The notes beneath the pieces are model-generated. The model was given only the letters and a program-made list of their open reading frames with translations. It did no database searches and had not been told where the DNA came from. Both the position numbers and the translations under genes were made by a program. This document shows, one piece after another, positions 26,550 through 54,823 of a stretch of DNA of 64,000 bases (position 1 is the first letter of the stretch; each line of letters begins with the position of its first letter). Origin of the DNA: an uncultured Anaerolineae bacterium (GTDB lineage Bacteria > Chloroflexota > Anaerolineae > CG2-30-64-16); the NCBI GenBank assembly GCA_937124585.1, contig CAKZKT010000127.1, positions 1-64,000 on the forward strand. The letters run 5' to 3'.

Positions 26550-26613
26550 CGGCAAATCGGCAAATCAGCAAATCAACAAATCAACGTTATTTGCCCATTT
26601 GCCCATTTGCCGG
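26550..26613. repeat. 8 x 8-bp iterated array
   Basis: CGGCAAAT CGGCAAAT CAGCAAAT CAACAAAT CAACGTTA TTTGCCCA TTTGCCCA TTTGCCGG. Confidence 0.9.
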
Positions 26614-42151: not shown

Positions 42152-42173
42152 CCTGTCGCATGGGCGCGCGGTC

Positions 42174-42407
42174 GCCCAACGTGCCAGGCACCCACCCAGG
42201 TGCCTGGCACGGAGAGACCGCCGCCCAACGTGCCAGGCACCCACCCAGGTGCCTGGCACGGAGAGACCGCCGCCCAACGTGCCAGGCACCCACCCAGGTG
42301 CCTGGCACGGAGAGACCGCCGCCCAACGTGCCGGACAGCCGCTCAGGTGCCTGGGGAAATACCGCCGCCCAACGTGCCGGGCAGCCGCTCAGGTGCCCGG
42401 CGCGAGA
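42174..42407. repeat. Five-copy tandem hairpin array (49-bp unit; last two copies divergent)
   Basis: Units start at 42174, 42223, 42272, 42321 and 42367; units 1-3 identical, each with GTGCCAGGCACC-CACCCA-GGTGCCTGGCAC. Confidence 0.95.
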
Positions 42408-45471: not shown

Positions 45472-46653
45472 GCGGAACGGCGCCCGGGTGACGGGCTCGC
45501 GCGCGGCCGGGGTGATGGCGCCCAGCACGACCGATCGCCGTGCGCCGGTCGCCGCGGGCAGGTTGCCCGGCCGGCCGTGCCACGTCTCGTAGGCCAGGAC
45601 GGCGAATGCGACGGCCTCTTTGGCGTCGCCGGGCAGCCCCAGGTCATCCGAGGTGAGGATGCGCGCCGCAGGCAGCCCGGCACGCAACATCGTCATCAAC
45701 AGGGGATTGCGCGCGCCGCCGCCGCTGACGATCACTTCGTCGGGAAGCTGCGGCAGAAAATCGCGATAGGCCTGGACAATCGAGCGAGCGGTGAACGCGG
45801 TGAGGGTCGCGACAATGTCATAGGGCGACAGGCCGGCTGCCTGCGCCCGCTCCCAGACCTGCGCGCCGAATTGGGTGCCGAACCGCTCGCGGCCGGTCGT
45901 CTTCGGCGGCGGCAGGCTGAAGTACGGCTCGGCCATCAGCTCGGCCAGGAGCGCCTCGTCTACCCGGCCCTGGCCGGCGAGCGCGGCGTCCCGATCATAC
46001 GCCCACGCGCCGCCGGTAGCGCGTGCGGCGGCATAGTCAATGAGCATGTTGCCCGGCCCAGTGTCGAAGGCGAGCAGGCCCCCGCGCCGGCCCTCCCCTG
46101 CTGAGACAGACGCAGGGGGCAGGAAGGTCACGTTGGCGATGCCGCCGATGTTCTGCACCGCGCGCGGCCGGGTCGGATGTGCGAAGAGGAGCTGATCGAG
46201 ATAGGGCACGAGGGGCGCGCCCTGGCCGCCGGCTGCCATGTCGCGCGACCGGAAATTGCTCACCGTCGTGATGCCCGTCAGCTCGGCGATGACGGCCGGC
46301 TCGCCCAGCTGCAGCGTGGATGCCGCCGGGCCGGCCGGTTCATGCCAGACCGTCTGGCCGTGGCTGCCGATCAGATCGACCTGATCGGCGCGCAGGCCGG
46401 CCGCGGCGATGGCGGCCAGCGCGGCCTCGGCGAAGGCCCGGCCCAGGCGAAAATTCAACCGACACAGCCGCTCCACCGTGCCGGTTTCAGGCCGAAAAGC
46501 GGCGAAGATCTCGGCGCGCAGGTCGGCTCCATGCGGCATGGCGACGTGCTTCAGCAGGCGCCAGCCGAGCGTGGGCGGTGCGCCCCACAGCTCGACCACC
46601 GCCGCGTCTATCCCATCGGCCGAGGTGCCCGACATGAGGCCGACGACGATCAT
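45454..46653 (-). CDS. anmK: Anhydro-N-acetylmuramic acid kinase
   Basis: [44 protein letters not shown]. Confidence 0.95.
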
Positions 46654-47906
46654 AACGCCTCCAGCGCGGCGACGATGGCCCGATGCAACGCGACGCGAAA
46701 TGCCAGGATGCCGGCTGCATCCCGGCCGTAGTAGACGCGGTTCGTGCACACGGCGACGGTGAGCGCCCGCTCCGGATCCATCCACAGCGATGTGCCGGTG
46801 AAACCGGTATGCCCAAATGCCCGCTCACTGAACGGGTTGCCGCTCGCCTCCGGGTCGGGCGACCAGAGCGCAAAGCCGATCCCCCGCCGCGTCGCGCCGT
46901 CCTCCGCCTGCAAACGGGTCATTTCGGCGATGGTATCCGGCCGGAAGATAGCGGGGCGGGGCGCGGAACGTTGAACGTTCAACGTTGAACGTTCAACGTC
47001 ACTTGTCAGGAACGTTTCCCCGAAGGCTGCCAGTTCGGTCGCGGTGGAGAAGAGGCCGGCATGACCCGCGACGCCGCCCAGGCCGGCCGCGTTCTCGTCG
47101 TGCACCTCGCCGACGATCCGTCGCCGGCGCCACGCGCAGAATTCGGTGGCCGCGATATTGCCCGTTGCATGTTGCGCATCTGGGCCCGTCGCACTGCCGA
47201 TCGCCTCGTTTGCCGATTCTTCCATTTGCCGATTCGCCGATGCGCTGATGCGCAGGTAGCGCGTCCGGCTCAGGCCGAGCGGGCCGGTGACGCGCTGTGC
47301 CACGGCTGCGTCGAGGGGCAGGCCGGTGAGGCGCTCGATGGCCAGGCCGACCAGGATGAGGCCGATGTCGCTGTAGATGACACGTGCAGCTATGGGATAG
47401 GAAAAATACGTCGTCAGGGCCAGGCGACGGGCCGCCTCGGCGCTGCCGGCTTTGTAGAACGGCCGCCAGGCCGGCAAGCCGGAGGTATGCGTCAACAGGT
47501 GGCGGAACGTGACGCGGCCCGCGTCCACATGGGTCGCGCCGGGCGCTACGGCCGGATCCCACGTCACCGCCACTTGCGCACCCGGCTTCAATGGGTCGTC
47601 GTAGGGCAGGATCGGCCGCTCGCCGACGAACTCGTCCAACACGGCCGCCACGGGCTGATCCAGCCCTACGCGGCCCTCTTCGACCAGCGTCATGAAGGCG
47701 GTGACCACAAAGAGCTTGGTGACCGAAGCGAGATCGAACAGCGTGTCGGCCGTGATCGGCCTCGCCTGCGTCTCTGGGTCGAGCCAGCCGCAGGCAACCG
47801 ACCAGAGCGTCTCCCCGGCCCGGCGCACCACCACCTGGCCGGCCGGAAAGACGCGGCCGAGCGCGGCCTGGATGATCGCTTCTGCGTCCGAAAAATGATG
47901 GGCCAT
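46650..47906 (-). CDS. Serine hydrolase (class C beta-lactamase/esterase fold) with two repeat-derived insertions
   Basis: [15 protein letters not shown] (SxxK), VYSDIG-like [15 protein letters not shown]. Confidence 0.9.
46967..47001. repeat. 5 x 7-bp array within CDS
   Basis: AACGTTG AACGTTC AACGTTG AACGTTC AACGTCA. Confidence 0.9.
47194..47257. repeat. 8 x 8-bp array within CDS
   Basis: CTGCCGAT CGCCTCGT TTGCCGAT TCTTCCAT TTGCCGAT TCGCCGAT GCGCTGAT GCGCAGGT. Confidence 0.75.
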
Positions 47907-50944: not shown

Positions 50945-51910
50945 TCACAGCTCCATGATCTTCCCCAACATCCAATACGCTCGAAACGGCTTGAAACCGA
51001 ATTTCGCGTAGAAGTCCACGATGCTGGTCCAGTCAATGACGCAGCCGCGCACGCCCGCTGCACGCATGTAGCGCAGCGCGACGTCCATCATCACCGCGCC
51101 GTAGCCCTGGCCGCGGCGGTCGCTGCTGATGCCGACCGAACCGAGCTGGCCCCAAGGCCGCGGCAGGCCGTGCGGGAAGAAACGGTCGAGCGGCCGCCGG
51201 GAATCCTCGTAGGTGAGCTGGCAGAAGCCCTCCACGCCCCGTTCGCTCCAGAGCAGAAAGTAGTCCGAGAGGCGACCGCCCTCGGCCAGGTGACATTCCG
51301 CCTCAAAGCGCCAGCGGCCGGGGAACTCACGGTGGAGGAAGGCCAGCAGTGCCTCCTCCTCGCCGGGCCGGGCCGGACGCGCCTCAAGACCGGTTGCTTT
51401 CAGGGCGCTCGCCGGCGTGACGTACGCCGCCAGGTCGTGGGCGACATCCCAGCTGCGCTCGTGACCAGGCACCGTCGTGTAGCCGTGACGTTCGAAGAAT
51501 CCCTCGGTGTGCAATTGCACCGGCAAGCCTGCCGCAAAAGGATGCATGCTCCCGCCCAGGCGCAGGCGACGGCAGCGCTGATCGGCCAGCCAGCCCTCGG
51601 CCCACGCCAGCAGCGCCGTCCCGATTCCCTGGCGTTGAAAATCGGGGTGTACGGCGATGGCGTCCAGCCAACCGGCATCCGGCGGCGAGACGCTCGGCTC
51701 AGCGGTCAGGAGCGAAGCCAGCACAAAGCCGACAGGCTGTCCGGCCTGATAGGCGATGGCGCCGGCCTGCGCGCCGGCCGGAATGGGCATCGTGTTGTAA
51801 ACCATCGCCCGCTCGGTGATCGCCAGGTTCTCACCACATGCTGCGTTCCAAAGCCTCGTCGCTGCCGCGATCTGCGCCGGATCAGCAAAATCAAACAGCC
51901 GTAATTCCAT
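50945..51910 (-). CDS. GNAT family N-acetyltransferase (likely two GNAT domains)
   Basis: AVHPDFQRQGIGTALLAWAEGWL and GISSDRRGQGYGAVMMDVALRYM; start at MELRLFDF, because the ORF-track N-terminus is repeat-derived. Confidence 0.88.
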   Translation of the reverse strand: MELRLFDFADPAQIAAATRLWNAACGENLAITERAMVYNTMPIPAGAQAGAIAYQAGQPVGFVLASLLTAEPSVSPPDAGWLDAIAVHPDFQRQGIGTALLAWAEGWLADQRCRRLRLGGSMHPFAAGLPVQLHTEGFFERHGYTTVPGHERSWDVAHDLAAYVTPASALKATGLEARPARPGEEEALLAFLHREFPGRWRFEAECHLAEGGRLSDYFLLWSERGVEGFCQLTYEDSRRPLDRFFPHGLPRPWGQLGSVGISSDRRGQGYGAVMMDVALRYMRAAGVRGCVIDWTSIVDFYAKFGFKPFRAYWMLGKIMEL

Positions 51911-51929
51911 CGGGTTCCGCCTTTCCGAT

Positions 51930-51985
51930 AAACGTTTAAACGTTGGAACGTTGGAACGTTTAAACGTTTGAACGTTCCAACGTTT
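51930..51985. repeat. 7 x 8-bp array of NAACGTTN near-palindromes
   Basis: AAACGTTT AAACGTTG GAACGTTG GAACGTTT AAACGTTT GAACGTTC CAACGTTT. Confidence 0.95.
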
Positions 51986-53250
51986 CACGCCCCTGCTGCG
52001 CGGCGGTAGTCTGCCATGTCCACCACCCGATTGCTCAGCCGCGACTCTTCGGCGGCGAACGCCATCAGGTGGCTCTCCAATGAGGCGCGGCCGCTGGTCA
52101 TCGGCGCCTCCTCTCCGCGCAGTGCACGCAGGAAGCCGGCCACGACGCCGAAATCGCCGCCGCCGTGGCCGCTGGCGGCCGCCGGGATCTCCACCTGCTC
52201 GGTGCGGTTGGTCACGTGGTCATGGATCTCCAGCCAGCCGCTATGATAGTCGAACTTGCCGCGCAGCGTGGCCCGGGTGCCGTCGTAGCGCATCGTGCGC
52301 GATTCTTCGTGGGAATGGCCGTGCATGAAGAGCACGACCGTCGCGCCGCCGGGAAACTGCATGTTGACCGTCTGCGTGTCCACCACGTCGTTGTCGCAAT
52401 GGTAGACGCAGCGGCCATATGGCCCGGTCTCCAGGGCGCGCTGCCGGGCCTCCAGGCTGGTGTCCTCGCTGATGACGGAGATGGGCCAGCCGGTGTAGTT
52501 CGGGATCAGGTAGATGCGCCGGGCATCCCACGGGCACTGTTCGGCCACCGGGCAGCCGTCGGTGCAGCGCAGCGGCGCGGCCGGTGGCGCGTTCTCCGGC
52601 CGATAGTGGATCAGCGCGCCGAACGATTGCAGGCGTTCGACCTCGCGGCCCATGTTCCAGTAGAGGATGTCCAGGTCGTGACAGCATTTCGCGAGGATCA
52701 TGGGGCTGGAGGTGGCGAAGTTGCGCCAGTTGCCGCGCACGAAGCTGTGCGCCATGTGCCAGTAGACGACGTTCTCCCGATGCTCGACGGTGACGATCTC
52801 GCCCAGCCGGCCCGATGCCAGGACCTCGTGCAGGGTGGAGAAGAAGGGGGTGTAGCGCAGCACGTGACAGACCTGGAGCAGCCGGCCCTTTTGTTCAGCG
52901 GTCCGCACCAGTTCGACGACATGGTGCAGGCGCTCGGCCATCGGTTTCTCCAGCAGCACGTGATAGCCGGCATCCAGGGCGGCCATGGTCGAGGGGTAGT
53001 GCGTTTGATCCTGGGTCATGTTGAAGAGCGCGTCGGCGATCTGGCCTTTCACCAGCAGATCCTCCCAGGTGACGAACTGGCGCTCCGGCGGGATGCCGTG
53101 CGCCTCTGCGAAGCGGGCGCGGCGCACGGGGTTCGGCTCCGCGACTGCGACGAAGCGCAACTCATCGGGATGCGTCAGGGCGTAGGGGCCGTAGCTGAAG
53201 TAGCCCCGGGCGCCGGCGCCCAGCAGAACAGCGGTGATCGGTTTGGTCAT
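51985..53250 (-). CDS. Gfo/Idh/MocA family oxidoreductase
   Basis: AVLLGAGARGYFSYGPYAL; YHVLLEKPMAERLHHVVELV; start at MTKPITAVL inside a longer ORF. Confidence 0.93.
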   Translation of the reverse strand: MTKPITAVLLGAGARGYFSYGPYALTHPDELRFVAVAEPNPVRRARFAEAHGIPPERQFVTWEDLLVKGQIADALFNMTQDQTHYPSTMAALDAGYHVLLEKPMAERLHHVVELVRTAEQKGRLLQVCHVLRYTPFFSTLHEVLASGRLGEIVTVEHRENVVYWHMAHSFVRGNWRNFATSSPMILAKCCHDLDILYWNMGREVERLQSFGALIHYRPENAPPAAPLRCTDGCPVAEQCPWDARRIYLIPNYTGWPISVISEDTSLEARQRALETGPYGRCVYHCDNDVVDTQTVNMQFPGGATVVLFMHGHSHEESRTMRYDGTRATLRGKFDYHSGWLEIHDHVTNRTEQVEIPAAASGHGGGDFGVVAGFLRALRGEEAPMTSGRASLESHLMAFAAEESRLSNRVVDMADYRRAAGA

Positions 53251-54485: not shown

Positions 54486-54536
54486 GGTCGGACGAGGCCG
54501 TCAATGAGGCGGGTTGAGGAGTTGGGAGGGTGGGGG

Positions 54537-54823
54537 GGCACGACACGGAGGGCACGGAGGCCACGGAGAGGGGGCGCGACTCAGAGGGCATAGAGGCGGC
54601 GCAACACGGAGGGCACGGAGGCCACGGAGAGGGGGCGCGACTCAGAGGGCATGGAGGCGGCGCAACACGGAGGGCACGGAGGCCACGGAGAGGGGGCGCG
54701 ACACGGAGGGCACGGAGGCCACGGGGAGGGGGCGCGACTCAGAGGGCATGGAGGCGGCGCGACACGGAGGGCACGGAGGCCACGGAGAGGCGGCACGACA
54801 CGGAGGGCACGGAGGCCACGGAG
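54537..54823. repeat. Minisatellite of 61-bp and 36-bp units
   Basis: ACACGGAGGGCACGGAGGCCACGGAGAGGGGGCGCG repeats starting at 54543, 54604, 54665, 54701, 54762 and 54798. Confidence 0.95.

What the first reader, a model, noticed from the sequence alone, without database searches (positions are those of the whole stretch)
51930..51985. Seven octamers of NAACGTTN ending exactly at a stop codon
AAACGTTT AAACGTTG GAACGTTG GAACGTTT AAACGTTT GAACGTTC CAACGTTT fills the 74-bp gap between the GNAT start (51910) and the Gfo/Idh/MocA stop; the final base belongs to the stop codon. Every unit keeps the 6-bp palindrome AACGTT while its flanking bases vary, so the palindrome rather than the octamer appears constrained. 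Eight-bp spacing of palindromes could be a protein-binding, methylation or replication-slippage signature.
Basis: partly seen in the sequence, partly recalled or inferred. Interest (0 to 1): 0.75.

Follow-up and report, generated by a model that had tools for sequence, protein, structure and literature searches.

The report
Dispersed palindromic heptamer/octamer repeat array
The seven AACGTT units are a real tandem array, one of 13 scattered through this bacterium's genome, and look like slippage-grown short-repeat filler between operon genes (a known kind of repeat with an unusual palindromic unit), although one sister array is strikingly conserved and may have a job.

Summary
The array is real: seven AACGTT at exact 8-bp steps (51931-51984), abutting the Gfo/Idh/MocA stop codon, 20 bp before the GNAT start. 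The genome holds 13 such arrays at mixed 7/8-bp spacing; the reversed control pattern finds none. They share no flanks and lie mostly between operon genes, sometimes in frame inside genes. Relatives lack them (aldolase-like locus, actAB-like spacer, beta-lactamase loop) or hold a different short-repeat array in the same spacer. In three sampled genomes of the phylum, tandem repeats are almost only of period 7-8, occur in 10-12% of short operon spacers and are 10-96x denser outside genes.

Palindrome constraint is not supported. Outside arrays AACGTT is depleted, Roseiflexus-like arrays break the core freely, and the one orthologous array has two of five substitutions in cores. Linkers are mostly one-base duplications of a 7-bp unit (65/76) and are not ordered to form hairpins. 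Best reading: a lineage-specific member of the known class of dispersed intergenic heptamer/octamer repeats, grown by slippage and mostly tolerated.

Unexplained: the nuoA-nuoB array is 91% identical between two genera, while flanking third codon positions are 57-68% and 18 other orthologous spacers at most 61%. That one may be functional.

The parts
51931..51984 (.). array of seven AACGTT at 8-bp steps, linkers TA GG GG TA TG CC (plus strand)
51985..53250 (-). Gfo/Idh/MocA oxidoreductase gene; its stop codon (51985-51987) abuts the array; start approximate
50945..51910 (-). GNAT acetyltransferase gene downstream of the array, same strand
51911..51930 (-). 20-bp residue of the spacer with Shine-Dalgarno-like purine stretch before the GNAT start
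   Evidence: sequence
46967..46999 (.). second AACGTT array (7-bp steps), in frame inside the beta-lactamase-like gene; absent from two relatives
46650..47906 (-). beta-lactamase-family gene carrying the array as an insert of about 14 residues

Best explanation
The array is one copy of a genome-specific family of dispersed short tandem repeats with a 7-bp unit (GAACGTT or its complement AACGTTC) that drifts to 8 bp by one-base duplications. It grew by slippage-type tandem duplication in a place where extra DNA is tolerated: directly behind a stop codon inside an operon, leaving the next gene's ribosome-binding region intact. Because the core is its own reverse complement, inversions and strand ambiguity change only the linkers, which makes the palindrome look more constrained than it is. 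Shown: 13 arrays, their spacing, intergenic preference, empty or differently filled sites in relatives, and the linker spectrum. Inferred: slippage as the growth process and near-neutrality. How the same motif reached 13 sites is unknown.
For: 13 arrays, 53 triple matches and none for the reversed control; 33 steps of 7 bp and 32 of 8 bp. No shared flanks between arrays. Linkers: 65 of 76 dinucleotide linkers belong to the one-base-duplication set, purine-pyrimidine linkers 1 of 76. Arrays are more directional than randomly oriented linkers, as tandem duplication gives. Tandem repeats in G000, G005 and G256 are almost only of period 7-8 and about 10-96x denser outside genes, in 10-12% of short codirectional spacers, with gene orientation as in the genome at large. 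Presence/absence: beta-lactamase insert absent in two relatives; aldolase-like locus 86% identical but empty; actAB-like spacer with another repeat or none; Gfo-GNAT spacer with a different octamer in G005. Patchy in the phylum: 15 of 301 genomes.
Against: The nuoA-nuoB array is 49/54 identical between genera where third codon positions are 57-68% identical, while 18 other orthologous spacers reach at most 61%: not the behaviour of neutral filler. Slippage does not explain why one motif dominates at 13 unlinked sites, nor the near-exclusive period of 7-8. Linkers AG/CT, CG and GC (11 of 76) are not one-base duplications.
Confidence: 0.66

Rival explanations
1. Operon-spacer RNA element: the transcribed array folds into a long hairpin that tunes mRNA processing, stability or translation of the downstream gene; the sequence is exchangeable as long as it folds.
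For: The window array folds at -26.7 kcal/mol (z -3.3), other AACGTT arrays z -2 to -5.8. All nine nuoA-nuoB spacers of the family have negative z although built of different repeats, several as inverted arrays. Inverted partners near arrays: 10 of 39 in G000 against 0.4% in controls. The nuoA-nuoB array is conserved.
Against: A palindromic unit folds by itself. Linkers are not ordered to pair: 10 complementary pairs seen, 10.4 under permutation, 17.1 under random orientation. In G005, spacers with arrays fold hardly better than those without (z -1.06 vs -0.73). Orthologous spacers often lack any array.
Confidence: 0.2
2. Array of binding sites for a DNA-binding protein or methyltransferase that recognises AACGTT.
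For: In the window array all 42 core bases are intact while linkers vary; the motif recurs in 13 phased arrays.
Against: AACGTT outside arrays is depleted, 48 vs 80 expected. Spacing mixes 7 and 8 bp, so there is no fixed phase. No promoter preference. Arrays sit inside reading frames. The core decays in G256 arrays. No paper in the library links AACGTT to a bacterial methyltransferase.
Confidence: 0.06
3. Copied or templated element: arrays are inserted as units (ectopic copying, template switching or an unknown templated synthesis) rather than grown in place.
For: The same motif is at 13 unlinked sites; relatives show empty sites; higher-order runs such as GG-C-GG-C recur in different arrays.
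Against: No shared flanks, and unit number and linker order differ in every array. No associated enzyme gene was looked for genome-wide.
Confidence: 0.08

Closest known systems
GGGAATC / GGGGA(C/T)T heptamer repeats of Xanthomonas and Nostoc (PMC4692102)
   Same: 7-nt units, heterogeneous units with some fixed positions, many dispersed loci, mostly intergenic between genes on the same strand, close behind the upstream gene, array length and sequence varying between relatives.
   Different: G-rich and G-quadruplex prone, and the majority lie between the same genes in the two Xanthomonas species; here the unit is a palindrome, spacing mixes 7 and 8 bp, and occupancy turns over between genera.
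TAACTGA direct repeats of Beggiatoaceae, Cyanobacteria and Bacteroidetes (PMC4679880)
   Same: Dispersed heptamer arrays, patchy phylogenetic spread, mostly intergenic, function unknown.
   Different: In the main genome studied those lie just before start codons and related heptamers are rare; here arrays tend to lie behind the upstream stop and units vary.
(GATAGRA)n heptamer satellites of Chloroflexus aurantiacus (PMC6749651)
   Same: A single heptamer family at many loci in one Chloroflexi genome.
   Different: Different, non-palindromic unit.
Tandem heptanucleotides (STRR) of cyanobacteria (Calothrix example cited in PMC4692102; otherwise from memory)
   Same: Tandem heptanucleotides, known mostly from between genes.
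   Different: Different motifs; not compared here.

Membership tests
Dispersed intergenic heptamer-type simple sequence repeats | tandem unit of about 7 nt, several copies | tested here: met
   33 steps of 7, 32 of 8, 1 of 9 bp in 13 arrays; period 7-8 almost exclusive among tandem repeats. The window array itself has only 8-bp steps.
Dispersed intergenic heptamer-type simple sequence repeats | same motif at many unlinked loci of one genome | tested here: met
   13 arrays on 8 contigs, no flank homology
Dispersed intergenic heptamer-type simple sequence repeats | strong preference for non-coding DNA | tested here: met
   9.5x (period 7) and 19x (period 8) denser outside called genes in G000
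Dispersed intergenic heptamer-type simple sequence repeats | length variation between closely related strains | not testable with these tools
   only one genome per species is held
HIP1-like highly iterated single palindrome | palindrome over-represented as isolated sites across the genome | tested here: not met
   48 outside arrays against 80 expected
Methyltransferase or protein-binding site array | core conserved independently of flanks between orthologous copies | tested here: inconclusive
   two of five substitutions in the nuoA-nuoB array hit cores, against the feature; but this is one pair only
Methyltransferase or protein-binding site array | methylation or binding at AACGTT | not testable with these tools
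   no methylation or binding data
REP/MITE-type mobile hairpin | shared element ends or flanks between copies | tested here: not met
   no flank homology between arrays; no fixed copy structure
REP/MITE-type mobile hairpin | linked or cognate transposase | not tested
   not searched genome-wide

The most novel reading that the evidence does not exclude
Operon spacers in this bacterial family hold exchangeable 7-8-nt repeat arrays that act as RNA spacer elements: the motif is swapped between genera, but an array or hairpin is kept behind the upstream stop, and some, such as the nuoA-nuoB AACGTT array, are under purifying selection.
Probability: 0.13. Interest if true: 0.65.

Novelty: new member of a known kind. 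Interest (0 to 1): 0.33.

Why it matters
Heptamer-type repeats in bacteria are known but poorly explained. This family shows array gain, loss and replacement at identified operon spacers between genera, gives a simple account of why a palindromic core looks protected, and offers one conserved exception (nuoA-nuoB) where function could be tested.

Tried and rejected
Selection on the palindrome: isolated sites depleted, ortholog substitutions in cores, core loss in G256. Hairpin by design: linkers not ordered for pairing. Larger mobile element: no flank homology. Promoter-type location: gene orientation as background. Papers on AACGTT tandem repeats or AACGTT methyltransferases: none relevant. 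The exact nuoA-nuoB element was found only in G000 and G005.

Full report
What is there. Window 51931-51984 holds seven AACGTT at exact 8-bp steps. It abuts the stop codon of a Gfo/Idh/MocA gene and ends 20 bp before the start of a GNAT gene on the same (minus) strand. A second array at 46967-46999 has 7-bp steps and lies in frame inside a beta-lactamase-family gene.

Genome-wide. The pattern AACGTT N1-3 AACGTT N1-3 AACGTT occurs 53 times in the 4.83-Mb assembly, which resolves into 13 arrays; the reversed control gives 0. Among all hexamers in the sampled 0.72 Mb, which was chosen to include all 13 arrays, AACGTT forms the most arrays. Steps are 33 of 7, 32 of 8 and 1 of 9 bp. Outside arrays AACGTT is depleted against a Markov expectation (48 vs 80), like most other palindromes tested there. 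Flanks of different arrays are not homologous.

A wider class. In samples of G000, its relative G005 and the Roseiflexus-like G256 (so called only from its length of 5,801,598 bp, from memory), tandem repeats are almost exclusively of period 7 and 8 and roughly 10 to 96 times denser outside called genes; G036 shows none of this (gene calls are my own simple ones). About 10-12% of short codirectional spacers hold such an array, against 0-2% of coding segments. Each genome has its own vocabulary. Gene orientation around arrays matches the genome background.

Turnover at the same places. The beta-lactamase insert is absent from two relatives, and a second insert nearby is absent or shorter. At an aldolase-like locus the G005 ortholog (86%) has no array, whereas in G000 the array supplies the end and stop codon of the upstream gene. 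In the actAB-like spacer G000 has AACGTT, G004 a long inverted array of TGCGTGG-type units, G005 two short units, G002 and G003 nothing. In the Gfo-GNAT spacer of this finding, G005 has an array of a different octamer, TTTGACGT/TTTCACGT. The NrfD-like array sits in a hypervariable stretch of the protein.

Is the palindrome constrained? Within the window array, it looks so. But the linkers of all arrays are largely what one-base duplications of GTTGAAC or GTTCAAC give: 65 of 76 dinucleotide linkers, with 1 of 76 purine-pyrimidine. Finding arrays by intact cores also favours intact cores. In G256 arrays only 66 of 147 units keep the core. In the orthologous nuoA-nuoB array of G000 and G005, two of five substitutions hit cores.

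Hairpins. Transcripts of AACGTT arrays fold strongly, and spacers in the family often hold inverted arrays. But linker order does not favour pairing, and array-bearing spacers of G005 fold hardly better than others. So hairpins look like a by-product of a palindromic unit, not a general design.

The exception. The nuoA-nuoB spacer of G000 and G005 is 49/54 identical and equal in length, while third codon positions are 57% (nuoA) and 68% (nuoB) identical, and 12/20 and 14/20 directly beside the spacer. Eighteen other orthologous spacers are at most 61% identical. The exact element was found only in these two among 298 genomes of the class. Part of the conserved stretch is the ribosome-binding region. 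Purifying selection or a small recent conversion would both explain it; I cannot separate them.

Comparison with the known. Dispersed heptamer repeats are described for Xanthomonas and Nostoc (PMC4692102), Beggiatoaceae and others (PMC4679880) and Chloroflexus aurantiacus (PMC6749651). The present arrays share their anatomy and setting and differ in the palindromic unit, the 7/8-bp mixture and the turnover between genera.

Verdict. A real, non-random feature; a new, palindromic member of the known class of dispersed heptamer-type repeats, most likely slippage-grown and tolerated, with one conserved copy worth testing.

Noticed in passing
window 26552-26611: Octamer array (GCAAATCG-type) followed by AACGTT and then the reverse-complement array (ATTTGCCC): an inverted tandem array that would form a long hairpin.
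   Followed up: partly
window 47154-47252: Second in-frame insert ([19 protein letters not shown]...) in the beta-lactamase-like protein, resembling a GCAAATC-type repeat, absent or shorter in relatives.
   Followed up: partly
window 42173-42401: 4.7 copies of a 49-bp tandem repeat, 92% matching.
   Followed up: no
window 54534-54823: Nested arrays of CACGGAGG-type 9-bp units with higher-order 61- and 97-bp periods.
   Followed up: no
L057:322-372 (nuoA-nuoB spacer) and L172: AACGTT array 91% identical between two genera although flanking third codon positions are 57-68% identical.
   Followed up: yes
L076:8726-8760, L078:281-315, L166:11757-11817: Inverted arrays of a shared TAGACAAGG / CCTTGTCTA vocabulary at unrelated loci of G000 and G005.
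   Followed up: no
L055:1152-6566: Four AACGTT arrays within 5.4 kb of one contig, an unexplained cluster.
   Followed up: no
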